A DNA stretch of 64,000 nt. Source: Phytophthora colocasiae. Lineage: Eukaryota; Oomycota; Peronosporomycetes; Peronosporales; Peronosporaceae. Position numbers and translations under genes: made by a program. The notes beneath the pieces were generated by a model that did not search any database, had not been told where the DNA came from, and worked only from the letters and a program-made list of their open reading frames with translations. Numbering within the stretch: the first letter of the stretch is position 1; each line of letters starts with the position of its first letter. The stretch lies in the NCBI GenBank assembly GCA_018806915.1, contig JAGKQI010000021.1, positions 1 to 64,000 on the forward strand, given 5' to 3'. This document shows, piece by piece, positions 2,419 through 33,256 of this stretch.

Positions 2419-4041
2419 TGTGAAGATGTGGCTCCAGTTTTTACGGAGTAAATACCCCAGCTACGCTCTGATTGGCTCTGAAAGTACTATATTGGGACGC
2501 TGCGAGCCAAGGAGGATTGAATGGACAAAATGAATGTGGATTCCGGAGAGCCCAGAGCGAAAGTCAGTCCAAGATCTCCAGTTTGGGACTCCAAGTGGTA
2601 TATGTCCGGTCTGGACGTACATACTCAAGTCAAGTGATTTCCTGGACTGCCGCCCTTCGCCCAGTTGGATACAGTTACCTGATTTCGAGATATTGGAGTT
2701 ACTTTTGGATGTCCAAGTGGAAGATGGTTGTTTGATGGAACAGGGTCCAACCGGTCGCCAGTCCAGATTTGTACCCATAGAGTCCAACCGGACTAGCCCT
2801 CCTGATTTGTACCCCAGAGTCAAACCGGGATTAGTCCCTGATTTTGTACCCACAATCGGCTGTTGAAGATCCGACCATACTAGACTCCAAGTGTTTTCCT
2901 GGACCGACCAAGACCGACTGACCATGATCTGTTCGGCACAGCTGGAATTCGGCCATGTTCTTCGGTGTTCTTCGGATGTGTCAGGTCGCCTCCGGATAAG
3001 CACGCCTCTACCTATAGTGAAACCAAGTTCGTATTTTGGCCAATGTTTAGCTTTACAACGGATAGTTATATATTAAAGAGAGTTCAATTTGCCACCAAGG
3101 GCGCAAGTGGGAAGAGCGGGAGGTTTCCATAAGCTTTACCACTGTGAGCACTGCCGACCAGCCTCGGAAGTCAGAGGGCTTTCGGAGTCAGCGAACAAGC
3201 TGGTCAGGCCGCGTCGACTATCGTCACCGCCGCGTGAATCTCCGCCAGGTTAAGACCAAGTTGGGAAGGTGATCCGGGCGGCGATTCACTGGGCGTGACC
3301 TCCCATTTCATATCCCAGTTGGACATTCCAAACGGTCGTTTGGTTTGTACATTTCATATTACAAATCATGCGTTTTAGGAGGTTATTAGTAGTCACCCCT
3401 GAAATTGATCCTCAGATTGACTGCTGTGTGATTGGACTGTATTTGTGTGTGTGTGTATTTTGGGAGTGCTCTATAGTATTCCTGGTACATTTGGATAATT
3501 GTCTTCTGGGAGTCCAAGTGGACTTGCCAGAAGTGGTGCGCCAAAGCGACTCCGGGATTGTGCCAGTGTCCCGGTTGGAGTGCGTCCAACGTCGTACTGG
3601 CATTTGCAGAGTGCACCCACCGCTCAAGCGGGGCCGGAAAGAATACAGAAGGGCTGTATATTTGCATTTAACTCTCTTGTATATTGGTTATCTGTTGTTG
3701 GAAGGCTTTGCTAATAGTCTCTCACCTGCATTCAGACTCAACCATCTGCATTTGGAAGTGCATTAGCACTCTAAGCATCTGGATCCAGTCAAGCTTTTGG
3801 AAGTAACTCATCCGGAAAGGTGGAACTCTCGCATGATTCGAAGACAAACGACAATTTCTACGAGGGTAGCTCACAAGGTCACACGCCAACCCTCTTTCCG
3901 GATACCCATTTGGATCCCGGGTTGGAGGTTCTGACTTTCGTTAGTCTGACCGGACATCTTTCCAGTCGGACTTATTTTTTCCGGAAGACACGCTACGCAC
4001 GCACCATGGGCGGAAAAGTGAGTTCACCCACTTTCGCCACA
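2419..4041 (+). repeat. Gypsy-1 5' LTR
   Basis: About 1,623 bp, beginning TGTGAAGATG and ending CGCCACA. It matches 17,787-19,317 along its whole length, but this copy is about 92 bp longer because of many scattered one- to few-base insertions. Substitutions are few. Confidence 0.93.
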
Positions 4042-4067: not shown

Positions 4068-4454
4068 CCGAGGATATTTCACTGAGTTATTTTTTATATT
4101 TTGATTAGTTTCGGGGTTTGGAGTACTTCAACTGACTTTCTGATCGTTAGGTTGTTATGGACTGGAAGTGAAACTACATGCGAAGGAGAGAGGCGACGCG
4201 TCTGGAAGCGAGTATGGCTACGAGAGCGTCGGGAGAGAAGGTTGCTGAAAGGGCAGCAGCCTTGAGGAGCACATGAAGATTTGGAAACCATTGTGAGAAG
4301 AAATCGTCAGGCGAACGCTGCGAAGCGGAAGAGCTGCCCTTGAGGGCAAAGGGAATTGCTGGAAACGTGAAGAAGTCCAGTCGGAGGCCGACCAGTTGGA
4401 CGCGCACCACGCGTGTCAAGACGGAAGATAGCCTTCCTGAGGAAGCTTCGGCGG

Positions 4455-7328
4455 ATGGAGAAGGCGATCCCTGAGCAGGAGGAGTTCGGGTCCGAGGAGG
4501 ATCCGGATGGAGAAGAGGAGTCTGGATCGGATGTCGACCCGGACGAAGACCCTTCAGATGAGTCCGGTCAGGAGGTGTCCGAAGGGGAGGAGATCGAAGC
4601 TGTGGAAAACGAGGCTGAGGACTCCGATGGAGAGGACGCGTTTGAAGATGTCCAGGTGGAGGATCGAGTTCCGGATTCTCCTCCCTTGGAAGGTTTTCAT
4701 TTGGATGCTGATGCCCCCGTTGGAATGGCCTCAGTCAAACAGGGGTATCGACCATTGTCACCGGTCCGGGAGGACATTGCGCTGGAAGACACGATCGTGA
4801 CTTCGCCAATGACTCCGGACGTCCAAGTGCCACCGCTGATTCCGGACGAATCACCTGTTGTGGAACAGTCTGGGACGACGGCTCAACAAGCATCTGGAGT
4901 TTACATCCCGGATGCCCAAATGTTCGAACCTCCGAATGTTCAGCCGAGAGTTCAACCGGCACCGTCGGAATTCGAGATGACGGAAGTTCAAGCGAAGGCG
5001 TATGTGGCCGATCAAGTACGACGTTGGGAGCGTGATGGTTCCGAAAGGAATATCCCACCCGAGGCCCGATTCGACTGGCCGCAAGTCAGGCTGAACTGTG
5101 AACCGTTCATTCAGGCGGCGTCCATGACCTCGCAGTATTTGGATCGCCGGATGTCGATGCCAGCTCAGACTGACGCTTGGATCTCCGAGTTGCAGATACA
5201 CCGTCGAACGTTCGGAATGGCTCGGGACATCCAAGCGGCGTTGATTCCACCTTCGGAGTTTTCTCCGCGAGAATGTATTGCTGTTCTTCAGACATTACTT
5301 TTCGAAGCTGGATTTGGATTTGTCAACCTCGTCCCGGGATGGTTCCGGACGCGTGTCTACAAAGTGCATCCGGATTTGGTCCGTCAAGTGGTCGGAGACA
5401 TGCTCCAGCTATTGGTGGTCGAATTGGTCGAATGGAGGCAAGTGGTTGTGCAAGCGACAGAGTTTAACCGGATATTGGCAACTTCTGGGAGACAAAGCTT
5501 ATACGAACAACATCCAGAAGTGTTCAGCCAAGATGAAGGTGTGTTTATTTCGGGTTACGAAGTATCGCTGTTTGGATGGGAATTCGCGAGGCTGCTGAAG
5601 TCGGCTGGATTCCGGAAGGTACGCAGTCCAAGAGGACCCGTCCAGCCAGAGGTTCAACCGAAGCGTGTTCAGCGAGTGATGCCCCGAGCGCCACCATCGT
5701 CTATCCCGTCGCCCGTTGCATCATCGTTCCCATCGGCACCATCGTCGTTATTCCAGAGTTTGGGGTCCAGCCGGACTGGGTCGTCTAGAAGCGGCATGAC
5801 TTCTCAACAGAGCATGTCCGATCAGACAAATCCATCCGAACGAACGCGTTCGATTGAAGAGTCAAGCTTGTTTGGAACCTCCGGAGGGTCGAGTGAGTCG
5901 ATGGCTAGCGCTTCGTCAGGGACGCGGACTTCCAGGGAGAGCACGTCAGATTCGTCAGGGTTTGGAATGAGTCGATCCGCCGGATCGCATATGCCGTTCC
6001 CCAGGTTCACTCCGATGGTCATGTCCGCTCGAACTTCAGGAGGCGCTATGCCCATGGAATCCGGAATGGCTTTCCAGATTACTCACGAGAATCCTCGTGG
6101 ACGCTCAAGTGTCGTCCAACAAGATGATGTTGATCTGGAAGAGTCTAAACCGGAGAAGCCGAAGAAGAAGCATCCGAGGCGACGTGAAGCGGCCCGCGCA
6201 GACAAGTCTTCGAAATCCAAAGAACGTGGAGGTCGAAAGTCCGAACGGCGCCATGAGACTCCAACTGAATCAGTGCGGTCCGAGCGGTCCTCCAAGTCTG
6301 CAAGTTCCGGATCTACCCAGGTCGCGTTGAACACCATGTACCAGCTTCAGAAGGTCATGGCGCGGATGGAGGACCAGCAAGGCTCTGCACTGGAGAAGAT
6401 GTCTGGAGACCTGGACAGCAAGCTGGACCGACTGTTGGACTCCAAGTTCAAGAAGCTGTTCCCGAAGCAGGAGCCGACCCAAGTGTTCACTGCGCGTCCG
6501 GAAGTCCGAGCCGATTTTGGACGTCCAGATGGCCCCTCGTTGGAACTCGAACAGGACCAGAGGGACACCACTCGGGACGTCAAGTCCAAGTCCAAGCCAT
6601 CGAAGGAGCTCCGCAGACTACGGCGAGAACTGGAAGAATCGGAAGCTACCCGGAAGAAGGAGCGCGAGGCATCTTTGGCTGTCCAGAAGTTCCTAGCTAC
6701 GCAAGTCCGAGATCTTCGGGCAACGACAGCCAAGGAATTTGTGAAGCCAAAGGCGTCCGGACGCACTCCGGATATTCAAGATCGTCAGCCGTCTGGTCCA
6801 ACGTCTTTGCACCAAGTATCCAGCGGCACATCCCAGGGAGCATCTTCAGCCGGTTCCCAGAAAACAGATGTTTTGGATCCGGATGGATTGCTGGCCGCTC
6901 AACTTGCGGCCGCCCTCCAAGTTGTCACACGGGAGACGAAAGCGCCCAAGACTCACGAGGCGAAGGCGCCGACGCAGCAGGCTCTGGTGGCGAGGAAAGA
7001 TGCAGACGCTGGACGACGAAGTATGTCCGGACGGAGCTCGCGTGATGTCCGGAAGGGGTCGAAGGACACGTCCGAACAGAGCTCCTCGAGACGTTCAGGT
7101 GTACCGAAGAAGACCTCGTCGAGGAAGGACAAGTCGTTGAGGAAGCCGTCCTCCACCCGGAGGAAGAGATACTCCGACGATGATCCAAGTTCTTCCGGTT
7201 CGAGTTCGAGTTCGAGCAGTGATTCTGACTCTGAAGCTCCGATAGCAGCTCGTTTGAAGACGCAACCTGACTCACGACAACGACTGGTCCGAATGGGACG
7301 ACTACGTACCTGTTCAAGCCTTTCGTAA
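4455..7328 (+). CDS. Gypsy-1 Gag-like protein, N-terminal frame
   Basis: An open frame of about 957 codons from ATG 4455. The first ~110 residues are strongly acidic (Asp/Glu/Ser). A globular part follows at roughly residues 175-420, with an aromatic-rich segment (VPGWFRTRVYKVHPDL). After that come long Ser/Pro-rich and Lys/Arg-rich regions and an acidic-basic coiled-coil-like stretch (SKPSKELRRLRRELEESEAT). It ends just before the recognisable retrotransposon Gag core in another frame, so it is probably the N-terminal part of an oversized Gag. TCCGGA occurs about 16 times here, against fewer than one expected. Confidence 0.65.
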   Translation: MEKAIPEQEEFGSEEDPDGEEESGSDVDPDEDPSDESGQEVSEGEEIEAVENEAEDSDGEDAFEDVQVEDRVPDSPPLEGFHLDADAPVGMASVKQGYRPLSPVREDIALEDTIVTSPMTPDVQVPPLIPDESPVVEQSGTTAQQASGVYIPDAQMFEPPNVQPRVQPAPSEFEMTEVQAKAYVADQVRRWERDGSERNIPPEARFDWPQVRLNCEPFIQAASMTSQYLDRRMSMPAQTDAWISELQIHRRTFGMARDIQAALIPPSEFSPRECIAVLQTLLFEAGFGFVNLVPGWFRTRVYKVHPDLVRQVVGDMLQLLVVELVEWRQVVVQATEFNRILATSGRQSLYEQHPEVFSQDEGVFISGYEVSLFGWEFARLLKSAGFRKVRSPRGPVQPEVQPKRVQRVMPRAPPSSIPSPVASSFPSAPSSLFQSLGSSRTGSSRSGMTSQQSMSDQTNPSERTRSIEESSLFGTSGGSSESMASASSGTRTSRESTSDSSGFGMSRSAGSHMPFPRFTPMVMSARTSGGAMPMESGMAFQITHENPRGRSSVVQQDDVDLEESKPEKPKKKHPRRREAARADKSSKSKERGGRKSERRHETPTESVRSERSSKSASSGSTQVALNTMYQLQKVMARMEDQQGSALEKMSGDLDSKLDRLLDSKFKKLFPKQEPTQVFTARPEVRADFGRPDGPSLELEQDQRDTTRDVKSKSKPSKELRRLRRELEESEATRKKEREASLAVQKFLATQVRDLRATTAKEFVKPKASGRTPDIQDRQPSGPTSLHQVSSGTSQGASSAGSQKTDVLDPDGLLAAQLAAALQVVTRETKAPKTHEAKAPTQQALVARKDADAGRRSMSGRSSRDVRKGSKDTSEQSSSRRSGVPKKTSSRKDKSLRKPSSTRRKRYSDDDPSSSGSSSSSSSDSDSEAPIAARLKTQPDSRQRLVRMGRLRTCSSLS

Positions 7329-7339
7329 ACGCAAGCACG

Positions 7340-8032
7340 TTGGAAGACTTCGACGAGAAGGCCGCGTTGTCCAACCGGATGCGCTGGTTAGAGCGATTTC
7401 AAAGTATGGCGGTTCAAGGCGGCTGGGCGGACAATGTCAAGATCTACGAAATGAAGTTGAAGATGTCCCCGGCTGTCCGGAATTGGCGTGCGAATTTGGA
7501 CTCCAAAGTGCGTCGGAAGTGGAAGCCCTTCTTGAAGGCATTCCGAGAGCGATATTGCAAGGCGAAGACTTCGGATGCGGAACGCTATTACACGATGATC
7601 CAAAAGAAGTCGGAGACCCCGTTGGAGTTCTACTACCGGTTGAACAAGGTGGCGGACCGAGCGGGTATTGAAACCGATGGATCGAGTAAGCGCCGCGAAG
7701 ACCATCTGAAGGTTTTCATGAAGAAGCTTTTAGACTCCCGCCTCCGGACAACACTCCAAGGTCAGCGTCTCCGAAGTCTGAAGGACGTCGAGTATGTCTT
7801 GAAACAGCACGAAGACTTGAATTTGGATGACGACTACGATACCCCTCCTCCAAAACGGGACTTCCGGGCGGACAATGTGTCCCGTGACAAACTCCGGTTG
7901 AAGCGGTCCGGACGGGCATATCTCACTCGGAGTGACGATACTTCGGACGATGATGACCGTCATGTGACGTTCCAAGAAGATGAAGCCACAACCACTCCGG
8001 AAGCGAATGCGACTTCGACACCTGAACTCTGA
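7340..8032 (+). CDS. Gypsy-1 Gag core (retrotransposon Gag family)
   Basis: The frame reads through a classical Gag core: W-L-E-RFQSMAVQGGWADN, then VRNWRANLDSKVRRKWKPFL and YYTMIQKKSETPLEFYYRLN, which is the usual W..W...F..F spacing. The frame is open for some codons before 7340 and overlaps the end of the preceding Gag-like frame, which implies a frameshift near 7250-7300. It overlaps the start of the next frame (CCHC region). Its role is assembly of virus-like particles. Confidence 0.75.
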   Translation: MEDFDEKAALSNRMRWLERFQSMAVQGGWADNVKIYEMKLKMSPAVRNWRANLDSKVRRKWKPFLKAFRERYCKAKTSDAERYYTMIQKKSETPLEFYYRLNKVADRAGIETDGSSKRREDHLKVFMKKLLDSRLRTTLQGQRLRSLKDVEYVLKQHEDLNLDDDYDTPPPKRDFRADNVSRDKLRLKRSGRAYLTRSDDTSDDDDRHVTFQEDEATTTPEANATSTPEL

Positions 8033-8483
8033 GAGTTCAAACGTCACTTTTCCAACTATGGATGATCTTTCGGACGCAGTGTTCAAGATCCTTCAGGAAG
8101 GTGGATGGAAGTCTCGAAGTCCGAATGACCATACGGATTCCGGACGTCAAGGCCGTCCGAACTCCAAGCGACAAGGATTCCGGAATCCGAATTACTCCGC
8201 GAGATATTGCGAGAATTGCCGGGGTTTTGGACATGTCAAGGAAGATTGCTGGGCGGACATTGAGTGTGAAAGATGCCATCGAAAGGGACATCCGCCCCGC
8301 TTCTGCCGGACTCGACAGTGTGAATTCTGCAACAAGTATCATGAAGGACCGTGTGGAGAGTTCAAGGCGTTCCAAGATATCAAGAACCTGATCCGACAAG
8401 GTGCGCTAGACATACCGACTGCCATCCGGAACCAACTTTTGGATCCGGAGGACAATTCAGGGGAACAGCCGTCAAACCAATAA
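7980..8483 (+). CDS. Gypsy-1 Gag C-terminus with zinc knuckles
   Basis: A frame of 167 codons overlapping the Gag core by about 50 bp. It carries C-x2-C-x4-H-x4-C (CENCRGFGHVKEDC), then a second knuckle (CERCHRKGHPPRFC) and a third Cys cluster (CEFCNKYHEGPC). It is the RNA-binding nucleocapsid part of Gag. The frame differs from that of the Gag core, by either a frameshift mutation or a programmed shift. Confidence 0.75.
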   Translation: MKPQPLRKRMRLRHLNSESSNVTFPTMDDLSDAVFKILQEGGWKSRSPNDHTDSGRQGRPNSKRQGFRNPNYSARYCENCRGFGHVKEDCWADIECERCHRKGHPPRFCRTRQCEFCNKYHEGPCGEFKAFQDIKNLIRQGALDIPTAIRNQLLDPEDNSGEQPSNQ

Positions 8484-9268: not shown

Positions 9269-10027
9269 GTGTGGGCTGGTCGTGGTGACCGTTGGGTGAC
9301 TCAACTCATCTATGGAGCGAAGTCCTGGGCGGTTGCAGTCCGAGTGGTGAATATCTCGGAGAAGGATGTCTGGCTTGGGACGAATACTACTGTGGCTCAG
9401 ATTGTAGAGTATGGGTGTTACCCGTTCGGAAGATTTGTTCGGCCCGGACTTCGGAGGTACCGTGAGTGGGAAGTGCTCATTTTCGAGAATACGAATTCCA
9501 GACAGGAGCAGCTCCGACAGGAGAAGTACCTCCAAATGATGTCCGAGTCTGCGCCGCCGTCGGTCCAAAGACCGAAATACCCATGGCCGAAGAAGTTGTT
9601 GACACGGTCGCTGCGTGGGAGTACCAGGGTTCATATGGTCCAACTGCAGATTCCACCGTCGGAAGTTCAGAAGGTGTTACATCCAGAAGTTGCAGATTCT
9701 GTTACCAAACAGCCAGAAGATGCTGGAGTCACCCCCGATGAAGTGTCTGATGGAGACAGTAATGATTGTCCTACCAACGATGAATCTGTTGGAAGTTCGG
9801 ATGATGAGGATTTTTTCGATGTGATTAGCATGGATGACGAAGGTGTACCCGTGGAACGATCGACAAAATTGACGATTTTGGAAAGATCAGATGGTGATCC
9901 AACTGGAGATGAATTTTTCGACGCGATTAGTATGCTGACGGAGAACGCTTTCCGGAAGAAAAGTTGGTTGAAGAACTCGAATCTGAAGATGTCCAGTCGG
10001 AGGCTGAGTCCAAGTTGGACGTGGTAA
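9269..10027 (+). pseudogene. Gypsy-1 protease-RT linker
   Basis: A frame of 252 codons containing a beta-rich segment (AKSWAVAVRVVNISEKDVWL) of the sort that follows the protease in some Gypsy polyproteins. A long acidic linker follows (repeats of DEFFDAISM and EDFFDVISMDDEG). The RT frame begins by overlap at 9964 in another phase, so a frameshift separates the two. Confidence 0.55.
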
Positions 10028-13000
10028 ATCGAGCCATCCGGAAGCTAGAGACCAAGTTCGTCCGATGCCTGCACGTGAATGCCGAAGAGTTGAACTTGGA
10101 GCCTGCTGTATATGTACATGAGGGAAGCGACATGTTGTCCCAGTTGCGTGAGCAGCTGGTTATGCTTCCGGAAATACATGAGCTGACTCCAAAGTGTGAT
10201 ATCGAATCGGCCGATGTAGGTGAACCGGGAAAAACTACTCCAGAAGAGGAACGTAAACTTCGGGACATTCTGAAGCGCCATCGGAGTATTTTCTTGGGGG
10301 ACGGTAATGCGGCTCCTGCTCCGGCCAGAGGTGTGATATGCGTGGACGTCGGGTCAGCAAAACCTGTCGCTCAACGACCCCGATCGATAGCTCCTCACTT
10401 GGCGATCAAGGTGTACGAGTTGCTCAAGAAGCTTCTGGAGACAGGTCTGATTGAACATTCCGAAAGCCCATGGGCCTCTCCAATCGTCATTGTTCTGAAG
10501 AAGAATGGGGTCGACATCCGGATGTGCATCGACTACCGGGTCGTGAATGGATTCATTTTACTGTCGAACTACCCGCTACCTCTGATCGACGATTTGCTGA
10601 TTGGATTCGAAAGTGCGATGTGGTTTATGAGTCTTGACATGGCCAGTGGATTCTGGGCCATCCGGATGTCCGAGAGGGCGAAACTGATCTCGGCTTTCGT
10701 ATGTCCGTTTGGACACTTCCAATGGGTGAGAATGCCATTTGGACTGAAGAATGCTCCACTAGTCTACCAGGCGGTTATCAACAATTGTCTGTGGGGTTTT
10801 GTCCGACTCCCGCCAGAGGAAGAAGCTGAAGTTCAACCGGAGGTTATGGAATTTCTGGGATTGGTCCGACCTGAGCATTCACTTTTGGACGATCGACCCG
10901 TTGGAGTTCAAGTGCCGAACCTGTCGGACACCATGACAGTCTTCCAACGGAACATCCCTGCTCCGTCACAGATGAGCCCGGTGTTAGGTCGAAGTTCGTA
11001 TATCGACGACATTGTTCATGGTGCTCCAACATGGGACCAGCTATGCGAAGACTTGAACGCACTTCTGTTTCGACTCCGATATTGGAACATCTCGGTGAGC
11101 CTTCCGAAGAGCGAGTTTGGAAAACTGACCATCCCGTACTTGTCCCACGAGATCAGTGCGGAGGGTATCAGAGCGACTCCAAAAATCGCGAAGGGCGTTT
11201 TGGACCTACCATTTCCGAACACTCTGAAAGGGGTCCAATCGTTCCTTGGAAGTTTGAACTATTACCACAAGTTCATCGAAGATTTTCCCGTGGTCGCCGC
11301 AGTGTTGTATGAGTTAACTGATGAGCAGATTCAAGTCCGGCCGGAACTTGATCAGGCCAAGGAAGCGTTCGGACTTCTGAAGCACAAGATCGTTTCGACT
11401 CCACTGCTTCGACACCCCGACCGGACTCGACCGTTCGTGATCATCCCGCATGCAAATGCTTGGGCGGCTTGCGCTGTCTTGGGCCAGGAGTATGATGGTG
11501 TTATCCATCCGGTCAGATATACCGGTCGCGTTCTGAACGACTCTGAACTGCGATATCACATTGCGGAAAAGGAGGTCATCGCAATACTGAGAGTACTCCA
11601 AGTTTTCCGGACGCTGGTTGAACAGTCCAAGTTGATCGTGTACACACGGTATTCCGTCTTGAAGTGGGTTATCAATTCCAAGTCGGCGGATGGACGATGG
11701 GTACCCTGGGGACTCACACTGTCCCACTGGAATTTGGACATTCGGAAGGTCCAACGGGATGAAGATGGTTTGGCGGCCATTATGGGCGCCGGAATCACTC
11801 GTGAACACTTGGACGAAATCTCAGAGTCGTTGATTCCACTGAAGGGACGCATCCGGAAACCACCAGTGATGAGTATCGAGATGTTGGAGTCCGACTACGA
11901 AGGCGTCGTTCTGAGTTTCGACGGAGCTGCCAAGACCTCCAACCGGAAGGGCAGTTGTGGATGCATCCTTTGGAAGTTACCCGGTTGGACTATCCTCGAG
12001 GCTCGAGGTTTCATCTTGGAAGATGTCACCGTGAACGATGCCGAGTACCACGGCCTTCTGAAAGGTATGCTGATGGCGTCCGATCGGAAGATCCAAGAGT
12101 TGGTTATCGTTGGAGATTCTCGGATCGTGATTCAACAAGTTCAGGGTCTGATCAACTGCAATCAACCGCACCTCCAAAAACACCTTGCGGAGGCGGAGGT
12201 TTTGAAGGCAAAGTTCCAGAGGGTCCGACTGGTGCATCTCAAGCGAGACTACAACCAGGCCGCCGACTATCTCACTTCCAAGACTTTACTCTTGGGAGCG
12301 TCATGGGATGTCGAGGACGAAAGTGACCTACGTCATTTGGAGTACGTATCCAAGATTCCGGAAAAGTTGATGAAGCCTGAGGTTCCGGAAGTCAAGATCA
12401 CTCCAAAAGACAACGGACCAGTTGAACCTCCGGATGGTCATACTCTGAAAGATGAACCGCCAGATGATCAGCCTTCAAGTTCTGTGCGCATGAGTGCCCA
12501 GGGGCCAGCGGACGACATCCAAGTTGGTGGAAGGTTAGATGACAATCCTCCGGTTGGAGAAAATCTCGCTGGATCAGAATCTGCCCCCCTGACGTTCGCC
12601 GCTCGAGTCATGGCTGTGATAGCTCAGAATAATGATGAACCGGTTGGACGTCCAGATGGACCTCCAATGGGACCACTGGAGTTCCAGGCAGAGCGATGGC
12701 GGAGGATCAAGGTCCACCAAGACGCTGACGAGTACTTGTCTGAGCTGAAGTCATTTCTGAAAGGAGAGTTCCAACGGTTCTCCCCCCGGAGACTCCGAAA
12801 GATTGCCAAGGTCGCAGACCTGTTCACGTTGGACAGTCGAGATGTGCTGTACCGGATGACCACTGTCGCCCAGAAGCGTCCACGCGATTTTTTGGGTGAT
12901 TTGAGGTTGGTTGTTCCGGAGTCACTCCGGTCGGATATGCTACATTATGCCCATGAGGATTTCCAAGGTGGTCACCAAGGTATCCGTCGGACTCACGAAA

Positions 13001-13650
13001 AGTTACTCTTGGAGTTCTACTGGCCTGAAATGTATGCGGATGTTGAACGGCATGTGAAGGAGTGTGTAGATTGTGCCAGTGGAAAGGGACGACCTCCAAA
13101 TGGAGGACCGTCGCCTGGAAACATCGAACCGGCATATCCATTCCAAGTGGTGTCGATGGATTTCGTCACTCATCTTCCGAAGTCGGCTCGTGGGAATACG
13201 TTCTTATTATTGTTCCAAGATATGTTCTCTGGATATGTCATGTGCAAACCAATGAGTTCAACGACTGCCCAAGATGTTGCTGAAGTCTACGAGCAAGTGG
13301 TCTTCCAAAAGTTTGGTGCCAGTTCGATGATCCGACATGACCAAGATCCAAGGTTCATGAGTGCGGTGTTCGGATGTTTCCGAAATCTACTTGGAAGTCT
13401 CCAACGGGCTACTTTGGGATATCGCCCTCAGGCGAACGGTCAACAAGAACGGTCAGTCCAAACGGTCGTCCGAAGTATCCGAGGTTACATCATGGAAGCG
13501 GATCAGTCCGACTGGGACGACCATGTTGAACGGTTGATGTTCGCTTTGAACACTTCGTTCGATGCCACCCGGTTGGAGACTCCCTTTACTTGGTGCACGG
13601 CTGGGACGCCCGAGTACGATTTCGGCAATGTTGGGTCCAAAGGCCAATAG
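9964..13650 (+). CDS. pol: Gypsy-1 Pol: RT, RNase H, second RNase H, integrase
   Basis: A frame of 1,228 codons. RT: SPWASPIVIVLKKNG, MSLDMASGFW and the catalytic SYIDD near 11,000-11,010. The RT-linked RNase H follows (~11,340-11,800). A second type-I RNase H lies at about 11,905-12,300 with acidic residues in SFDGAAK, NDAEYHG, IVGDSRIV and YNQAADYL. The integrase has an H-H-C-C zinc domain (HEDFQGGHQG...CVDCASG) and a DDE core (VSMDFVTHL, RHDQDPRF, RPQANGQQERS). The RT palm contains an insert (LWGFVRLPPEEEAEV..., ~10,790-10,980) before SYIDD, which could impair it. The frame ends at a stop just after the integrase core, and the chromodomain tail continues in other frames. Confidence 0.88.
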   Translation: MVEELESEDVQSEAESKLDVVNRAIRKLETKFVRCLHVNAEELNLEPAVYVHEGSDMLSQLREQLVMLPEIHELTPKCDIESADVGEPGKTTPEEERKLRDILKRHRSIFLGDGNAAPAPARGVICVDVGSAKPVAQRPRSIAPHLAIKVYELLKKLLETGLIEHSESPWASPIVIVLKKNGVDIRMCIDYRVVNGFILLSNYPLPLIDDLLIGFESAMWFMSLDMASGFWAIRMSERAKLISAFVCPFGHFQWVRMPFGLKNAPLVYQAVINNCLWGFVRLPPEEEAEVQPEVMEFLGLVRPEHSLLDDRPVGVQVPNLSDTMTVFQRNIPAPSQMSPVLGRSSYIDDIVHGAPTWDQLCEDLNALLFRLRYWNISVSLPKSEFGKLTIPYLSHEISAEGIRATPKIAKGVLDLPFPNTLKGVQSFLGSLNYYHKFIEDFPVVAAVLYELTDEQIQVRPELDQAKEAFGLLKHKIVSTPLLRHPDRTRPFVIIPHANAWAACAVLGQEYDGVIHPVRYTGRVLNDSELRYHIAEKEVIAILRVLQVFRTLVEQSKLIVYTRYSVLKWVINSKSADGRWVPWGLTLSHWNLDIRKVQRDEDGLAAIMGAGITREHLDEISESLIPLKGRIRKPPVMSIEMLESDYEGVVLSFDGAAKTSNRKGSCGCILWKLPGWTILEARGFILEDVTVNDAEYHGLLKGMLMASDRKIQELVIVGDSRIVIQQVQGLINCNQPHLQKHLAEAEVLKAKFQRVRLVHLKRDYNQAADYLTSKTLLLGASWDVEDESDLRHLEYVSKIPEKLMKPEVPEVKITPKDNGPVEPPDGHTLKDEPPDDQPSSSVRMSAQGPADDIQVGGRLDDNPPVGENLAGSESAPLTFAARVMAVIAQNNDEPVGRPDGPPMGPLEFQAERWRRIKVHQDADEYLSELKSFLKGEFQRFSPRRLRKIAKVADLFTLDSRDVLYRMTTVAQKRPRDFLGDLRLVVPESLRSDMLHYAHEDFQGGHQGIRRTHEKLLLEFYWPEMYADVERHVKECVDCASGKGRPPNGGPSPGNIEPAYPFQVVSMDFVTHLPKSARGNTFLLLFQDMFSGYVMCKPMSSTTAQDVAEVYEQVVFQKFGASSMIRHDQDPRFMSAVFGCFRNLLGSLQRATLGYRPQANGQQERSVQTVVRSIRGYIMEADQSDWDDHVERLMFALNTSFDATRLETPFTWCTAGTPEYDFGNVGSKGQ

Positions 13651-14337
13651 CCTTCCGGAGCGCACAGCCTATGAGTGGAGACGTAGTGTGCAACGTGACT
13701 ACAGTTACGCTGTTGCGTTCGCTGAAGATCTCCAAAAGAAGGCCAAGAGGCGCCGGTCGGAGGCCCAAACGCAAAAGTGGAAGGAACTGGTCCGAACCGT
13801 TGAAGTCCCGGTTCGAAAAAGGGAGATTCAGTCTGGCTGTACATTCCGAAGGTTCAAACGGGACTTAGTCGAAAATTGGCTCACATGTGGCATGGACCTT
13901 TCCGGATTGAAGAGGTGCACGATGACTTCCGAGTGAAGCTCAAGGTTGAGGACACGGGTTATCGTGTCAACCCTTGGGTCCACATTAGTCGCCTGAAGCC
14001 ACGAGCCATCTTTCCGAAACGTCCAACCGTGGAAGTCCAACCGGACGATGACGATGATTTCGACGCTGCCTTGCTTCCCGAAGACAGTTGGGAACCGGAT
14101 GTCGGAAACAACGAGTATGAGGTCGAAAAGATCTTGGATCTCCGATGGTCCAAGCGGACCCGAACTTCCAAAAGAGTCCGAGAGTATCAGGTCAAGTGGA
14201 AAGGTTACGACGAACCAGAATGGCTACCTGTGTCGCAACTCAGCTGCGGTGCCCTGCTCTATGAGTTCAATCAAGGAGCAAGAGCGCGGGCGAGATTCCA
14301 AGCGATGCAGGCAGGGGACGATCATCCCCGGGCTTAG
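13590..14337 (+). pseudogene. Gypsy-1 integrase tail and chromodomain, frameshifted
   Basis: The integrase tail continues after 13,650 in two further frames. The last frame (13,876-14,337) has MWHGPFRIEEVHDDFRVKL and NPWVHISRLKPR, the usual GPY/F-like and 'H-x-S-x-LKP' region. A chromodomain follows (EYEVEKILDLRW...YQVKWKGYDEPEWLP). The chromodomain probably targets integration to histone-marked chromatin. At least one frameshift separates it from the integrase core. Confidence 0.8.
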
Positions 14338-14559: not shown

Positions 14560-17500
14560 TTAATGTGGGGTCACTACGTATGAAATATGCAAGACTACGA
14601 AAGGCATCCAGATGGAAAACACTCGCTTGGACTTGCATAGTGCCCACAGGTCAGAGAACTTCACGCGTTGTCCGGCCGGAATCAACTTGGCACGAACGTC
14701 TGGTGGGAGGTGCGCAATGCGCTCCTTGTCCGACTTGGAATGGCTCCATTGGGCTCGTCCAGGTTCACGCTTGTCCAAGATCTTCAACTGCTCTTGGACA
14801 GTATACGGCGCCGAAGTGTCCGGGTTGATGTGCTTCGGATCCATGAGAATCCAGTGGCACAGCTTGTGCGGGTACGCCCAGATGCCAGGCTCCATCCAAA
14901 GTGAGTCCGGGATGTCGGGATCCAGCTCCGTTTGGAGTGCGAGAACGCGCTTCCGGAAGGACGCTTGGTGGTTCGACCGATCGTTCTGCATCTGACGTAC
15001 GAGAGCGGGAGCATCGGCCGAACCATCCAATGTCAACCAGTGACCAGCGTTCCAGAACGACCGGACATTCCGTGAGACGAACTTGATCCACCGACCCAAC
15101 GCTTCCACCGTGTCATCCGAGAGGTCATCGCGCTTGTGAAAGAAGAACGTTTGGGTTCGGTTGGAGAACATCTCACTCCAAGGTGCGTCCGCCATGAGCT
15201 GCTGGATCTCTGAGAACTTGGTTGTCGAACGGGACTTCAAGATCTTGATGTCCCAACGATTGGGTGCGTAGTCCGGGAATCCAAACGTCTGGAGCGACAC
15301 CCCATACATGGGGTCCCCACGCTTCACCCGGACTCCGTAGTGCAGCCCCGACTTGTTCTCGTCGTCCGGGCTCTCGATCACTTCTTTCTCCGACTGGGTA
15401 AGGTCTTCGTAGTCCTTCCGAGCGAGAGCCGTCCGGGCAGACTTCGTCCGACGAGACTTCTTGGAGGATTTCGGCGTGGCAGGTGTACTGCTGGAGCTCA
15501 GACGACGGCGTGCAGAACGTGGAGGAGGAGTCTTGATATCTTCCTCCTCTTCTTCTTCTTCAGCATTTCCGTCGTCGTCCGGGTGGAAGTCCTCGTCCTT
15601 GGACTTGTCATCCTTGTCTTCGACCAGAGCGTCAGGATCGGGATCTTCTTCAACTCCAGACTCGCCTTCCACCATTGGACCCCAGAACTCCGGCTGAATA
15701 TCTTGCTCCACGAGATTAGCCAGAATGGCATCGGCCATACTGAAGTAGCGGCGAGGGACGTACTTTGTCCAGTGGACGTCGTCCAGTGCGTTCCAGTACA
15801 TCATCCGGACAAGCATCGAGAGTAGAACATCCAACTGGAAGCCAAAGTGAGCCGCACGATCATCGTTCAGCCACTCGATCACAGTTGGAAACGGGACACC
15901 CGTGCGAATCAGCATCTGGACGTCCAAACGGAGATCCTCCCAAGCAACCGGGTGATCTGCCAGAGACTTCCGAGCTTTCTCCACGGTCCAAGACAACGGG
16001 TACTTGTCGGAGAGACAGTCTTCGTTAGAGTGAGCAATCCACCCATCGGGTCGCTCTTGAACCTCCTCTGGAGCCTTTCGAGACTTCTTGCGGCGCTTGG
16101 AGCTTGAAGGACCGGTTGGAGGTCCAGACCGCTTCCTGGAGGACGACGAACCGGAAGACTTGGACGAATCCTTCGTCAGGTCGACCTCGTTGCCGGCCGG
16201 AGGATCGCTCTCCTTGGATTCATCACCGTCTTCCGAACGAGGAAGTTGCGTGAATGGCGGGAACGTGTGCCGAGTGTCATCTGGAGTCATCACAGTAATC
16301 ATGGTACGCCAGGACGACGGCACTGGGACCCCATCGCGAAAGTGAATCAAAAGTTCCAAGAGACGCTCCCAGTTCAACTGGAGCTCAGAATTTCCATTTC
16401 CACCGTGACCGAGAAAGTTCATGAGTCCAACTGGACTGAAGGATTGACGAGACTTGGCGGCGGCTAGTTGTTGTTGCAGGTCTCGAACCTGACGCTGGAG
16501 ACTTTGCTTGTCGCGCTTGTGTTCTTGGATGAGCTGTAAAGTGTCAGCTCGGAAGTTCTGCACGAGTTCCTCCTTCTCGGCTGCCGACATCGATACAAGC
16601 CGTTCCAGGGCTTGAATTTTCAGCTGAGACTCACGTTTCAAGTTGTCCAAGGAATCTTGGACAGCCAGTGCATCCGTCACCGCCGCGTCTGTATCTTCGA
16701 GCAGTGTCTGGTTCCGGGAGAGCTTCTGGATGACGCGACGAAGGTTAGAGACCGTCCCGAACACGCGACGCGCGAGACCTTCGGGTTCGAACTGCGTCAG
16801 GATAGACGCAAATTCCCGTCGGACCAGCAGGTTGTTCATCTCGGAATCCAGGGCATCCCCATCCAGAGGACGACCTCGGGGCACCAGCACGCGATAGTCC
16901 AAGTTCACTTTATCCTCGAAGAACTGAAACAACTCGGACTTCTCTGCAGTTGACAGACTCTCCAGCTGGACCATGCCCTCCAGACCACCATACCCATCTT
17001 GGACGAAGACACCAGGCTCCAAGTGGCGATCTGCCAATGGGATTCCAGCGATACGGACGCGCTCGTCGGAGCTCATGTCCTCCAAAATGTAACGACCGGG
17101 CCCCAACGTGAGAGTGGATACAGCCTTGCGCTTGAAAAATCCGATGCTGGAGGCCTCTCTGATGGTCACGAGCGAGCCAGGTACCTTCGCCGTGTCTGGG
17201 AAAGGAGGTGCAGGAGGCTCCGACGCGTGGCCACTGCCGCCGTCCTCCTCCCTGAAGTCATCCTCAGCCGTGGAACCGCTGGGAGCCGCTCCGGCAGACA
17301 CTTCCGTGCCGCCACCACCGTCGCCGTCGGCGCCAGTCGCCGCAGGAGCATTGGGAGATGCGTGTGAAGACGAGGCGCCTGTCGCAGGTGCGTCGGACGT
17401 CGAGGCGCTGCTTGGGGTCGCCATCGATGCGTTCAAGAGCTTGGAAATCGGGTTATGACTGGTGAACTGCCGTTTGGATTTGATTTGAGCCTTGATTGGG

Positions 17501-17727
17501 TAATTTGGGACGGGACGCAGAAAGGAAGCGACCTCCGCCAGTTGAAGAACGGAGTTGGAGTTTGCTGAGAAAGGAGATCTTCTGTTGTACTGAATTTTCG
17601 TGGACACAAAGCTCCTGCCGGACTGATAGACCTTTTCAGACTGAACATTCCGACCGAACCGACCTGAAGGTTTAGACCGACTGGGAGTTTTGGATGTCCA
17701 AGATGATGTCGCCCCACTTCGTCTCAT
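14560..17727 (-). CDS. Gypsy-1 antisense ORF, novel nuclear-type protein
   Basis: An intact minus-strand frame of 1,055 codons from ATG 17,727 (an internal ATG at 17,424 would give 954 aa) between pol and the 3' LTR. Visible parts, in order: an Ala/Ser/Pro/Gly-rich N-terminus; a globular block (LVTIREASSIGFF...LGPGRYILEDM); a ~100-residue coiled coil (about 14 residues of it being QSLQRQVRDLQQQL); a basic NLS-like KRRKKSRK; a globular block rich in Trp and Leu; an acidic run of Glu; and a Trp-rich C-terminal block (LGRWIKFVSRNVRSFWNAGHW). No family was recognised. Upstream, TCATTGAGAAATTTACT (17,763 to 17,747) matches the oomycete initiator. It is continuous while the sense genes are frameshifted, which suggests selection or recent acquisition. 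It could be a captured host gene or an accessory retrotransposon protein. Confidence 0.75.
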   Translation of the reverse strand: MRRSGATSSWTSKTPSRSKPSGRFGRNVQSEKVYQSGRSFVSTKIQYNRRSPFSANSNSVLQLAEVASFLRPVPNYPIKAQIKSKRQFTSHNPISKLLNASMATPSSASTSDAPATGASSSHASPNAPAATGADGDGGGGTEVSAGAAPSGSTAEDDFREEDGGSGHASEPPAPPFPDTAKVPGSLVTIREASSIGFFKRKAVSTLTLGPGRYILEDMSSDERVRIAGIPLADRHLEPGVFVQDGYGGLEGMVQLESLSTAEKSELFQFFEDKVNLDYRVLVPRGRPLDGDALDSEMNNLLVRREFASILTQFEPEGLARRVFGTVSNLRRVIQKLSRNQTLLEDTDAAVTDALAVQDSLDNLKRESQLKIQALERLVSMSAAEKEELVQNFRADTLQLIQEHKRDKQSLQRQVRDLQQQLAAAKSRQSFSPVGLMNFLGHGGNGNSELQLNWERLLELLIHFRDGVPVPSSWRTMITVMTPDDTRHTFPPFTQLPRSEDGDESKESDPPAGNEVDLTKDSSKSSGSSSSRKRSGPPTGPSSSKRRKKSRKAPEEVQERPDGWIAHSNEDCLSDKYPLSWTVEKARKSLADHPVAWEDLRLDVQMLIRTGVPFPTVIEWLNDDRAAHFGFQLDVLLSMLVRMMYWNALDDVHWTKYVPRRYFSMADAILANLVEQDIQPEFWGPMVEGESGVEEDPDPDALVEDKDDKSKDEDFHPDDDGNAEEEEEEEDIKTPPPRSARRRLSSSSTPATPKSSKKSRRTKSARTALARKDYEDLTQSEKEVIESPDDENKSGLHYGVRVKRGDPMYGVSLQTFGFPDYAPNRWDIKILKSRSTTKFSEIQQLMADAPWSEMFSNRTQTFFFHKRDDLSDDTVEALGRWIKFVSRNVRSFWNAGHWLTLDGSADAPALVRQMQNDRSNHQASFRKRVLALQTELDPDIPDSLWMEPGIWAYPHKLCHWILMDPKHINPDTSAPYTVQEQLKILDKREPGRAQWSHSKSDKERIAHLPPDVRAKLIPAGQRVKFSDLWALCKSKRVFSIWMPFVVLHISYVVTPH

Positions 17728-17746: not shown

Positions 17747-17763
17747 AGTAAATTTCTCAATGA
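17747..17763 (-). promoter_or_regulatory. Initiator/FPR-like core promoter of the antisense ORF
   Basis: On the minus strand TCATTGAGAAATTTACT has the same length and spacing as TCATTGTTCAATTTGCC before GH6-C. It lies 20-36 bp upstream of ATG 17,727, a normal distance for an oomycete initiator. It is outside the LTR, so transcription of this ORF need not use LTR signals. Confidence 0.55.
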
Positions 17764-17786: not shown

Positions 17787-19317
17787 TGTGAAGATGTGGC
17801 TCCAGTTTTTACGGAGTAAATACCCCAGCTACGCTCTGATTGGCTCTGAAAGTACTATATTGGGACGCTGCGAGCCAAGGAGGATTGAATGGACAAAATG
17901 AATGTGGATTCCGGAGAGCCCAGGCGAAGTCAGTCCAAGATCTCCAGTTGGGACTCCAAGTGGTATATGTCCGGTCGGACGTACATACTCAAGTCAAGTG
18001 ATTTCCTGGACTGCCGCCTTCTGCCCAGTTGACCTGATTTCGAGATATTGGAGTTACTTTTGGATGTCCAAGTGGAAGATGGCTGTTTGATGGAACCGGT
18101 CCAACCGGACCAGTCCAGATTTGTACCCAGAGTCCAACCGGACTAGCCCTGATTTGTACCCAGAGTCAAACCGGATTAGCCCTGATTTGTACCCACAATC
18201 GGCCGTTGAAGATCCGACCATACTAGACCCAAGTGTTTTCCGACCGACCAAGACGACCGACCATGATCTGTTCGGCACAGCTGGAATTCGGCCATGTTCT
18301 TCGGTGTTCTTCGGATGTGTCAGGTCGCCTCCGGATAAGCACGCCTCTACCTATAGTGAAACCAAGTCTATTTTGCATGTTTAGCTTTACAACGGATAGT
18401 TATATATTAAAGAGAGTTCAATTTGCCACCAAGGGCGCAAGTGGAAGAGCGGGAGGTTTCCCATAAGCCACCACTGTGAGCACTGCCGACCAGCCTCGAA
18501 GTGAGTCAGCGAACAAGCGTCAGGCCGCGTCGACTATCGTCACCGCCGCGTGAATCTCCGCCAGGTTAAGACCAAGTTGGGAAGGTGATCCGGGCGGCGA
18601 TTCCTGGGCGTGACCCCTCCCATTTCATATCCCAGTTGGACATTCCAAACGGTCGTTTGGTTTGTACATTTCATATTACAACTGCGTTTTAGGAGGTTAT
18701 TAGTAGTCACCCCTGAAATTGATTGATTGACTGCTGTGTGATTGGACTGTATTTGTGTGTGTGTATTTTGGAGTGCTCTATAGTATTCCTGGTACATTTG
18801 GATAATTGTCTTCTGGGAGTCCAAGTGGACTTGCCAGAAGTGGTGCGCTAAAGGACCCCGGGATTGTGCCAGTGTCCCGGTTGGAGTGTCCAACGTCGTA
18901 CTGGCATTTGGAGTGCCCACCGCTCAAGGGCCGGAAAGAATAAGAAGCGGCTGTATATTTGCATTTAACTCTCTTGTATATTGGTTATCTGTTGTTGGAA
19001 GGCTTTGCTAATAGTCTCTCACCTGCATTCAGACTCAACCACTGCATTTGGAAGTGCATTAGCACTCTACATCTGGATCCAGTCAAGCTTTTGGAAGTAA
19101 CTCATCCAGGTGGAACTCCTCGCGTTCGAAGACAAACGACACCTACGAGGGTAGTCACAAGGTCACACGCCAACCCTCTTTCCGGATACCCATTTGGATC
19201 CCGGTTGGAGGTTCTGACTTTCGTTAGTCTGACCGGACATCTTTCCAGTCGGACTTATTTTCCGGAAGACACGCTATACGCACCTGGGCGGGAAAAGTGT
19301 TCACCCACTTCGCCACA
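17787..19317 (+). repeat. Gypsy-1 3' LTR
   Basis: About 1,531 bp, starting TGTGAAGATG and ending CGCCACA, matching 2,419-4,041. A purine-rich GACGAGAGGGACGG precedes it as a weak polypurine tract. ATAC follows at 19,318-19,321 as the target duplication. Confidence 0.93.
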
Positions 19318-20094
19318 ATACCATCGCCGGAGTGTCTGGAAACACTTTGTCTAGTGCATTCATGCAAGCTAGATCACGATCGGTCAGAATGACGTGAGGA
19401 CTGTCAATGTGGTACTCAATCATCAGAAGTCGAAGCATGTTAAAAGCCCACATGTAGTCGTCCGTCTCCTCACCAGGTAGCCAACATTGCGCTACTGGCA
19501 AGACCGTGTTACAACCTGTGATCGCTATGATGTTCAGCAATGGCAGCTTGTACTTGTTTGTCTTGTACGTGCAGTCTGCGATTAGGATGTCGCTGTGGTC
19601 TTTGTAGAGAGCTGTTGTAGCCGGATGCGCCCAAAACAGACGCTTCAACTCGTCGGTCTCCGGGTTAATAGTCCACTTGTAGAAAAACTTGTTAGCCTTG
19701 AGTTTCTTGAAAACCGCCTCTGTTACCGTCGACAAGGACAATTCCCTGCGTCGAGCGGCACTTTTGGCGTTAGCAATGTCCTTGGCAACCACTAATGTAC
19801 TGGGATTAGCGCTGCGTATCGTTGTTTGAATGCGCGATACCGTTACACCAGCGGCAGTTTGAATGTCTGCCAGGGATTGCATGTTGCTCACAGGCGCAAG
19901 TAGATTCGCAGCAGCATCTCGACGTCGATGAGCAGAATGCACACGAATATCTTGTGATGGCTCGTGGTTGTGTAGCTCGCTTCTCTTCGTGTGTACAATC
20001 TTCCAGGGACCAGAGACGTCATCTTTGCTGACAGCATGAATAGCGATTCGCATGGGGCATTTAGAGCGCTTAGATCCACGTTGTGTACGGACTC
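19318..20094 (-). pseudogene. MULE transposase, central fragment (split gene, part 2)
   Basis: A minus-strand frame from the end of a FAR1-type DNA-binding domain (KRSKCPMRIAIHAVSKDD, ELHNHEPS) into the MULE DDE core: ILIADCTYKTNKYKLP with the first catalytic Asp, then VILTDRDLACMNALDKVFP with the second. It stops where Gypsy-1 enters (19,317). Upstream it is cut by Gypsy-2 at 20,095, with GACTC duplicated at 20,090-20,094 and 28,032-28,036. The reading frame is continuous with the fragments at 28,032-28,265 and 2,200-2,418 once both retrotransposons are ignored. Confidence 0.9.
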
Positions 20095-20508
20095 TGTAAC
20101 GGGGTTACACGGCGCTGCGCGCCTTGGCTACAATAGGTGTGGTATACACCATCCAGGTCACAAGTCACAGATCCGTGTACGACACATAGTGTTTCTCACA
20201 CGTCACATATGTAGCCAGTTGCTGGCTGTTAGCTCAGAGCCACACATTGCATTTGATTAGGATTTAGTATGTTAGATACTAAATCCGTTACATTCAGGAT
20301 TAGGGCAATAAAATAAATAAAAATCAGTTTGCATTTTACATAATTAGTGTTAGTTCCTTTATTATAGGGACACTGATTGTGAGAGTCCCGTATTAAGTGG
20401 ACTACTTGGTTCTTGTATAGAACCGAAGGCTAGTGCCTTGCAAGCAGGACTCCTACAGAGTCAACCAAACTTCCTCTGTGCCGTGCACACCTACGCAGCC
20501 CCGCTGCA
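20095..20508 (+). repeat. Gypsy-2 5' LTR
   Basis: Starts TGTAACGGGG and ends CCGCTGCA. It matches 27,620-28,031 nearly base for base. It is followed by TCTGGTAGCA, of which TGGTAGCA is the likely PBS start. Confidence 0.95.
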
Positions 20509-20840
20509 TCTGGTAGCACTTGTAGTCAATCCAACTCCTGAGTTGGAAGACTGTTTCTCTGTGAGAATGGGAGCCAGAAGCATACGCTCACTTGACTCCG
20601 AGTCAGCGGGACACGCTTAACAAGCTTACGTCCTTGCTGGGCCCTAAAGGTATGGCGCACCTTGCGTCTCAAAGGCCAGAGGCCGTCAACGCGCGCCTGG
20701 AGGCATTTGCCTCGTACGAAAACGCTCTCGTTGAGCAGCATTCAGCGGAATGTAAAAGGAGTTAATCCTGCCTCCGAGAGCTAAGCCCGTCACGCTCAGC
20801 GTGAAGACCTTTCACGGGCAACGAAGGAGAGAACCTCCTA

Positions 20841-21539: not shown

Positions 21540-21575
21540 ACGCGGGCGGTCTACTGGGAAGAACTGAGTTCTGCA

Positions 21576-21764
21576 GTGCGTGATAGGCACTGGGGCTCAG
21601 CCCCGAAGAGCTCCGTGCTCTTGAACACGGAACGTGTGAGCAAGCAGGGCTTGCTGGTCGTCCATGTGGACGTGAAGGGCTTCGAGAAGCCGTGGATCGT
21701 GTTGATCGATTCAGGAGCGTCTGGCAACTACGTCAGACGCTCCACCGTTGAGGGTAGTCAGTAA
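21576..21764 (+). pseudogene. Gypsy-2 aspartic protease, interrupted
   Basis: The catalytic motif IVLIDSGASGNYVRR is followed by a stop at 21,762-21,764. The second half (YDLILGMAWLERHEPWIDW) lies in the next frame from 21,852, separated by a short break. ILGMAWL is the standard flap-side motif of Gypsy proteases. Confidence 0.8.
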
Positions 21765-21851
21765 TATGCTGAGGCGCTTCGAGCGCGAAGAGGTGACACC
21801 GTCACTGTCCGTCTAGCGACGGGCGTCCGTGTCACGGCAGCCAAGGTCCCC

Positions 21852-27590: not shown

Positions 27591-27610
27591 CTCCGTATCC
27601 ACGGTTTGGT

Positions 27611-33227: not shown

Positions 33228-33256
33228 TCAGCTCGTCGACGCTCCAATCTACACAA

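What the first reader, a model, noticed from the sequence alone, without database searches (positions are those of the whole stretch)
14560..17727. Intact 1,055-codon antisense ORF with its own oomycete-type promoter inside a Gypsy element
The minus strand between pol and the 3' LTR carries one uninterrupted long frame while every sense gene of the element is frameshifted. It encodes a coiled coil, NLS-like and acidic segments and Trp-rich blocks, with no recognised family. TCATTGAGAAATTTACT lies just upstream of its ATG and has the spacing of the oomycete initiator/FPR. Antisense additional ORFs are known in some plant LTR elements; I know of none described like this in oomycetes. TCCGGA, which I count about 26 times in gag plus pol, is seen only about twice here, which hints at a separate origin.
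Basis: partly seen in the sequence, partly recalled or inferred. Interest (0 to 1): 0.88.

Follow-up and report, generated by a model that had tools for sequence, protein, structure and literature searches.

The report
Antisense third gene in Phytophthora retrotransposons
A family of mobile elements in Phytophthora, relatives of the potato-blight organism, carries a large, conserved third gene on the strand opposite its other genes; plant mobile elements have a comparable arrangement with an unrelated protein, so it may answer a shared need.

Summary
The antisense frame is real and is a gene of its element. It lies between the chromodomain and the 3' LTR of a 16.9-kb Ty3/Gypsy element that fits the oomycete group "Chronos" (dual RNase H plus chromodomain). 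Relatives sit at the same antisense place in 20 of 20 other copies fetched with pol-side flank. Of 150 listed chromodomain matches in this genome, 95 have one downstream on the opposite strand, 0 downstream on the same strand, 55 none listed. Five subtypes (A-E), about 30-54% identical, keep frames of about 1,020-1,118 codons. 23 of 24 related database proteins carry Phytophthora names (eight species). In-frame substitutions show purifying selection (median omega 0.38, against 0.89 and 1.43 in shifted frames), weaker than on pol. A 16-nt initiator+FPR-like block 36-37 nt before the ATG is kept across subtypes A-D. Corrections: the family protein here has 1,030 codons (this copy lost its stop); the "broken" sense genes probably reflect sequencing error at a contig end; the TCCGGA argument fails. 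Transcription and function are untested. Best guess: a nuclear accessory protein acting in trans, like the antisense ORFs of plant Grande/Retand elements but without their TRP28 domain.

The parts
14638..17727 (-). Antisense gene as it exists in the family: 1,030 codons, ATG at 17727
   Evidence: start MRRS kept in A, B, C and D types; stop TGA at codon 1031 in 14 of 14 other A-type copies
14560..14637 (-). Stop-loss extension private to this copy (codons 1031-1055 and stop); the family stop would lie at 14635-14637
17748..17763 (-). INR+FPR-like core promoter block TCATTGA-GA-AATTTAC, 36 nt before the ATG
   Evidence: definitions from PMC3599244
17772..17785 (+). Purine-rich tract next to the 3' LTR (probable polypurine tract), also kept across subtypes
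   Evidence: by eye
2419..4041 (+). 5' LTR (carries the error-like insertions)
17787..19317 (+). 3' LTR
4371..8483 (+). gag side: open stretches 4371-7328, 7271-8032, 7968-8483 in different frames
9931..13650 (+). pol open stretch: RT, gRNH, aRNH, integrase
11419..11727 (+). Ty3-type RNase H (RT_RNaseH); catalytic residues partly replaced, by eye
11917..12279 (+). second RNase H of aRNH type (RVT_3), D-E-D-R-D present by eye
13876..14337 (+). chromodomain ORF (within open stretch 13804-14337)
16345..16647 (-). coiled-coil-like segment, residues 361-461 (weak FlgN match, E 0.005, below cut-off)
16075..16098 (-). basic NLS-like cluster KRRKKSRK, residues 544-551
15541..15561 (-). acidic run, residues 723-729, followed by a second basic cluster (KKSRRTK, 756-762)

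Best explanation
It is a third, antisense protein gene of Chronos-type Ty3/Gypsy elements, carried with the element since before the split into subtypes A-E. Steps shown: a conserved long frame at a fixed place, on the strand opposite gag-pol, between chromodomain and 3' LTR; purifying selection in that frame; a conserved INR+FPR-like block in front of it. Steps inferred: it is transcribed from that internal promoter towards pol and makes a roughly 1,030-residue, probably nuclear protein (coiled-coil-like stretch, two basic clusters, acidic run, several conserved Trp-containing modules) that acts in trans on the element's own cycle, most likely on its transcription, silencing or nuclear entry, rather than as an enzyme or capsid. 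Because it would be transcribed against pol, the antisense RNA may add a second, RNA-level brake. The confidence given is for the gene itself; the inferred nuclear, trans-acting role I put at about 0.4.
For: Homologues: 9 + 2 + 13 proteins (each search scored about 8,000 candidates). 23 of the 24 carry Phytophthora names: palmivora, ramorum, fragariaefolia, megakarya, oleae, citrophthora, capsici, sojae; P0003 has no species name. 46 matches in the own genome, itself included. Context: 20 of 20 loci L009-L028 carry the chromodomain on the opposite strand. 95 of 150 chromodomain rows have an antisense relative downstream on the opposite strand and 0 downstream on the same strand. Distance is regular: 20 of 32 A-D sites lie 261-282 bp from the chromodomain; most of the 58 E-type rows lie 3.50-3.56 kb from N-terminal piece to chromodomain. 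Open frames: B 1,020 (2 of 5 fetched), C 1,063; D 1,077 and 1,090 without a stop; E 1,118 in 13 of 150 matches. E-type homology by sequence: 31.7% identity to C-type, E 3e-70. Selection: median omega 0.38 over 105 pairs of 15 copies (range 0.19-1.10) against 0.89 and 1.43 in shifted frames; shared variants give 0.35 with 0 shared stops, against 3 and 8 shared stops in shifted frames. Age: synonymous sites near saturation in both genes between A and B (pS about 0.70 pol, 0.76-0.77 antisense gene), pN 0.07 and 0.35. Promoter block: same distance to the ATG (36 nt in A, B, C; 37 in D) and the same 2-nt gap, while the adjoining LTR is poorly alignable between types.
Against: No transcript or protein evidence. 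The INR half of the motif departs from YCAYTYY at its last two positions in the types seen; C-type departs from the FPR consensus at one position; 2 of 13 A-type copies (L011, L015), 1 of 4 B-type copies (L026) and the one C-type copy miss the pattern. The block adjoins the polypurine tract, so its conservation may serve reverse transcription instead. Singleton variants are no less constrained than shared ones (0.40 against 0.35, Fisher p 0.64), which is not what simple post-insertion neutrality predicts. 55 of 150 chromodomain rows have no listed antisense gene; only the best-scoring candidates were scored, so this is undecided. 10 of 14 other A-type copies are broken. Three of eight C/D-type loci (L031-L033) have a cut-down gene and no chromodomain beside it. 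Some copies have a deleted antisense gene beside a long pol frame, so the gene is not needed in cis at every insertion. Subtype grouping agrees only roughly between genes: in chromodomain identity C-type is marginally nearer to A than to D. Element context in other species was not seen. No structure could be predicted.
Confidence: 0.85

Rival explanations
1. The antisense RNA, not the protein, is what matters: transcription against pol makes double-stranded RNA that limits copy number, and the open frame is incidental.
For: In P. infestans small RNAs map to Gypsy elements in both orientations (PMC3522703, passages); antisense promoters of plant elements are discussed in these terms (PMC7264820).
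Against: Selection follows the reading frame, not the strand; frames of about 1,020-1,118 codons persist in five subtypes, with near-saturated synonymous sites where measured, among A, B and C. Both effects may coexist.
Confidence: 0.08
2. A host gene recently captured by, or lying beside, an element.
For: LTR elements can transduce host genes (PMC7264820).
Against: 20 of 20 loci with pol-side flank, of three subtypes, have the chromodomain on the opposite strand; the subtype splits are old in both genes. No element-free relative was noticed, but the searches would not score a distant single-copy gene, so an ancient capture remains open.
Confidence: 0.03
3. The gene has been taken over for a host function and the element copies are its debris.
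For: Window copy and others keep the frame open.
Against: It is multi-copy at element positions, pol frames are kept in some of the same copies (C75:37820 and C75:94950 have pol 1,916 and antisense 1,118 codons open), and selection is seen among element copies.
Confidence: 0.02
4. A spurious antisense frame caused by base composition or by the codon use of a sense gene.
For: GC of 56% in this stretch lengthens chance frames.
Against: No sense ORF above 161 aa lies there; homologues at about 24-45% identity keep frame and motifs.
Confidence: 0.01

Closest known systems
aORF-3R of plant Grande, RIRE2 and Retand elements (Ty3/Gypsy)
   Same: [quoted passage not shown] own promoter and nuclear protein reported for Grande (PMC7264820, two of three text parts; PMC11963269, abstract and passages). 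That Retand lies among the aRNH-bearing plant Tat elements is recalled.
   Different: No TRP28 (PF04195) match at E up to 1 for the window protein; host is an oomycete; the element has a chromodomain; the protein has about 1,020-1,118 residues.
Chronos Ty3/Gypsy elements of oomycetes (Ustyantsev et al. 2017, PMC5348765)
   Same: RT, dual RNase H with a degenerate first and an aRNH-type second domain, chromodomain after integrase, Phytophthora relatives as hosts (paper parts 1-3 of 5).
   Different: A word search of the paper's main text gives 0 for 'antisense', 'additional orf' and 'orf3'; figures and supplements were not seen.
Boty (Botrytis) antisense ORF
   Same: Cited as a non-plant aORF-3R (PMC7264820).
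   Different: Host and element; sequence not compared here.
HBZ / APH-2 antisense genes of HTLV
   Same: Antisense genes of a retrovirus encoding nuclear proteins (as told in PMC11963269).
   Different: The HTLV antisense promoter lies in the 3' LTR (PMC7264820), here the block lies just inside it; no sequence relation is claimed.

Membership tests
Chronos LTR retrotransposons | Ty3/Gypsy pol with RT and integrase | tested here: met
   RVT_1 1.5e-17, Integrase_H2C2 7.8e-18; rve 1.1e-5 is below its cut-off
Chronos LTR retrotransposons | aRNH next to the Ty3 RNase H, D-E-D-R-D active site | tested here: met
   RVT_3 2.4e-17 after RT_RNaseH; best solved match Rv2228c, 7.5e-11; archaeal 3aly at 0.001; residues read by eye
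Chronos LTR retrotransposons | catalytic residues of the original RNase H lost | tested here: inconclusive
   by eye two aspartates look replaced; no alignment to a reference was made
Chronos LTR retrotransposons | chromodomain at the 3' end of pol | tested here: met
   PF00385 1.2e-7 above cut-off; lies in open sense frames of up to 2,002 codons in other copies
Chronos LTR retrotransposons | groups with Chronos in an RT tree | not tested
   no Chronos reference sequence held
antisense aORF-3R class | ORF antisense to gag-pol between pol and 3' LTR | tested here: met
antisense aORF-3R class | present in most copies and in several species | tested here: inconclusive
   95 of 150 chromodomain rows, the other 55 undecided; proteins from eight named species, their element context unseen
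antisense aORF-3R class | own antisense promoter active | not testable with these tools
   motif only
Retand TRP28 proteins | PF04195 domain | tested here: not met
   not listed at E up to 1 for the window protein, up to 0.05 in 16 members, up to 0.01 in 23 members

The most novel reading that the evidence does not exclude
Retroelements that gained a second, archaeal-type RNase H in plants (Tat/Retand) and in oomycetes (Chronos) also independently gained a large antisense nuclear gene at the same spot. The oomycete protein evolves several times faster than pol because it is a trans-acting counter to host silencing, and elements with the gene deleted still spread by using the protein made by others.
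Probability: 0.25. Interest if true: 0.87.

Novelty: new variant of a known kind. Interest (0 to 1): 0.72.

Why it matters
Chronos is counted at 1,555 copies in P. infestans and is found in all ten Phytophthora genomes of the table in PMC5348765. If its third gene has been overlooked, a set of "hypothetical proteins" in Phytophthora annotations are retrotransposon proteins, and a regulator of an abundant element group becomes testable. The parallel with plant dual-RNase-H elements suggests that antisense accessory genes may answer a recurrent need of such elements, and copies with and without the gene in one genome give a ready comparison.

Tried and rejected
Relatives elsewhere: phage records by tblastn, viral and prokaryote contigs: none. 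Pfam on 16 and 23 family members: for the window protein only FlgN, below its cut-off; for other members weak matches, best YL1 at 0.00097 in 3 of 23 and Nmad5 at 0.011 in 3 of 16, whose cut-offs the table does not show. P0007 and P0009 were left out of the 23-member alignment A4. Profile against PDB sequences: best E 0.15. LTR divergence as a clock: dropped. TCCGGA as an origin marker: dropped. Structure prediction was never accepted: queue full on 24 of 24 tries, so no fold search was made. The idea that E-type elements lack the gene, taken from one copy, was overturned. The census used a shortened E list (93 of 150); one search repeated it with all 150 E rows (95 of 150). Notebook entry 3 miscounts as 30 and 21; its output shows 32 and 19.
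Full report
THE OBSERVATION. The minus-strand ATG frame of 1,055 codons at 14560-17727 is present as described. Blastn of the region against the window finds the LTR pair 2419-4041 / 17787-19317, so the element spans about 16.9 kb and the frame fills the space between the chromodomain ORF (13876-14337) and the 3' LTR. No sense ORF above 161 aa overlaps it. Pfam finds RT, two RNase H domains, integrase parts and chromodomain in the sense ORFs, and nothing above cut-off in the antisense one.

IT IS A FAMILY. A protein search returned 9 relatives, a profile search 2 more, and a search with the E-type piece 13. 23 of the 24 carry Phytophthora names, from eight species; P0003 has none. Clusters stand for up to 30 member sequences (P0014, P. 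capsici). In the own genome (G000, 92.5 Mb, 105 contigs, window = C11:1-64000) the frame has 46 matches. Of 39 other sites then counted, 20 were taken with pol-side flank (L009-L028: 14 A-type, 5 B-type, 1 C-type); 20 of 20 have the chromodomain on the opposite strand and 17 of 20 also show pol. Of eight loci given by the C-type search, 5 show the chromodomain on the opposite strand; L031-L033 do not and carry a cut-down gene. Searches with C-type, P. ramorum and B-type queries, and with an E-type piece, added sites and subtypes. Three rows have a same-strand E piece on the other side within 6.5 kb, as a neighbouring element would give. 37 of 63 A-D sites have a listed chromodomain. Both lists are capped and the gene searches scored only the best candidates. 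Spacing is regular: 20 of 32 A-D sites lie 261-282 bp from the chromodomain, and most E-type N-terminal pieces lie 3.50-3.56 kb from it.

TRUE ENDS. The start MRRS is kept in A, B, C and D. The stop is TGA at codon 1031 in 14 of 14 other A-type copies; the window copy has lost it and runs 25 codons further. Most of the database proteins first found start near residue 105 of the window frame.

INTACTNESS. Of 14 other A-type copies, 2 (L009, L011) have neither frameshift nor stop over codons 1-1030, and 2 more (L010, L012) have lesions only within the first 51 codons; the other 10 are broken. Of 5 B copies, L022 and L023 are open for 1,020 codons, the others are cut or broken; C copy L028 is open for 1,063. 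D copies are open for up to 1,090. E-type pieces lie in frames of exactly 1,118 codons in 13 of 150 matches and of at least 1,000 in 25.

CONTIG-END ARTEFACT. The window's 5' LTR has 35 extra-base events against 1 for the 3' LTR, and of 65 mismatches only 2 are isolated. Against six LTR stretches of other copies it shows 30-31 gap events in each, while the 3' LTR shows 2-7 in all. As the window begins at base 1 of its contig, low-coverage sequencing error is the simplest reading (inference).

SELECTION. Among 15 A-type copies the median pairwise dN/dS is 0.38 in frame (105 pairs, not independent, range 0.19-1.10), 0.89 and 1.43 in the shifted frames. Variants shared by at least two copies give 0.35 with no shared stop, against 0.89 and 1.63 with 3 and 8 shared stops in shifted frames. 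In the same 11 copies pol gives 0.05 for shared variants and the antisense gene 0.27. Singletons give 0.40, not different from shared variants (p 0.64), so post-insertion relaxation is not visible. Between window and B copy L022 both genes are near synonymous saturation (pS 0.71 pol, 0.77 antisense gene) while pN is 0.07 and 0.36. The antisense gene thus looks as old in the element as pol but changes about five to seven times faster in protein sequence.

CO-INHERITANCE. The antisense tree joins A with B and C with D. Chromodomain identity also puts A and B nearest each other and D nearest C, but C is marginally nearer A (88.9-90.2%) than D (87.6-89.5%); integrase puts C with D and does not resolve the rest. 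This is roughly compatible with shared descent; it is not a formal test. C-type is 78% identical to a P. palmivora protein and B-type 57% to a P. oleae one, so the subtypes predate these species or moved between them.

E-TYPE. One E-type copy (L037) has only a 118-codon antisense stretch before the chromodomain. That piece as query showed that many other E copies carry it at the start of a much longer frame. The last 608 codons of one of them (L038) match C-type at 31.7% identity, E 3e-70. Eight rows have a short distance (348-612 bp); four of these on four contigs (C8:543144, C75:181480, C30:911067, C27:190877) share 610-612 bp, two of them with pol open for 1,916 codons. This suggests a deletion derivative that still spread, as expected if the protein acts in trans; whether the four deletions are identical in sequence was not checked.

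PROMOTER. The block TCATTGAG-N-[A/G]ATTT[A/G]C lies 36 nt before the ATG in A, B and C and 37 in D. A published analysis defines INR as YCAYTYY, FPR as MWTTTNC, nearly always 2 nt apart, with hits commonest within 50-100 nt of the start codon, and INR+FPR in an estimated 13% of P. infestans promoters (PMC3599244, passages). Here the FPR half fits in A, B and D and misses by one in C; the INR half misses its last two positions. A loose pattern occurs in 0.65% of 2,000 random 170-nt window segments but upstream of 14 of 18 aligned starts. The alternative, that the block serves the adjacent polypurine tract, is open.

WHAT IT IS. The element meets most tested Chronos features: dual RNase H, aRNH-type second domain, chromodomain after integrase (PMC5348765, three of five text parts read); no RT tree was made. 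A word search of that paper's main text finds no mention of an antisense ORF. Antisense ORFs at this position are known in plant Grande, RIRE2 and Retand and in fungal Boty (PMC7264820; PMC11963269, abstract and passages). Ours has no TRP28 match. Literature searches for an oomycete precedent found none in their listings: 0 papers; 1, a giant virus; 1; 4; 3; 11; 4; 19, 10 listed; 10, 8 listed. Beyond the listings I opened only PMC11963269, PMC7264820, PMC5348765, PMC3599244 and PMC3522703, and the library lacks most subscription journals. I therefore call it a new variant of a known kind.

MECHANISM. Shown: gene, position, selection, promoter-like block. Inferred: transcription, nuclear location (basic clusters KRRKKSRK and KKSRRTK, acidic run, coiled-coil-like stretch), action in trans on transcription, silencing or nuclear entry. 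The fast protein change fits either weak constraint or conflict with a host factor; I cannot separate these.

Noticed in passing
window 31660-34576, 41975-45580 (+); 49412-50203, 52866-53978 (-): Cluster of glycosyl hydrolase family 6-like genes, about 68-75% identical in DNA over stretches; two of them checked against Pfam (PF01341, 1e-48 and 3e-51).
   Followed up: partly
window 20095-28031: Probably a second Gypsy element directly after the Chronos element: a 414-bp repeat, 99% identical, at both ends, gag-like ORFs between and a tandem 132-bp repeat at 22247-22510.
   Followed up: no
window 19301-20053 (-): MULE transposase fragment touching the outer edge of the 3' LTR (PF10551).
   Followed up: no
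window 40245-40982 (+): Ulp1-protease-like ORF (PF02902, just under its cut-off).
   Followed up: no
window 45633-46619 (+) and 46914-47939 (-): Two facing zinc-type dehydrogenase-like genes; only the second was checked (ADH_zinc_N_2).
   Followed up: partly
L031, L032, L033: C-type antisense gene cut at about residue 715 and followed on the opposite strand by a stretch 32-37% identical to the N-terminus of the pol ORF: possibly non-autonomous derivatives.
   Followed up: no
G000 C28:54003, C100:3912082, C50:634219: Chromodomain copies (83-84% identical) in sense frames of 1,909 codons with no antisense relative listed: either a subtype with a still more diverged gene or one without it.
   Followed up: no
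G000 C34:267879-366103: A dense run of E-type N-terminal pieces on one strand, many about 3.56 kb apart, as if part of the element had become a tandem array.
   Followed up: no
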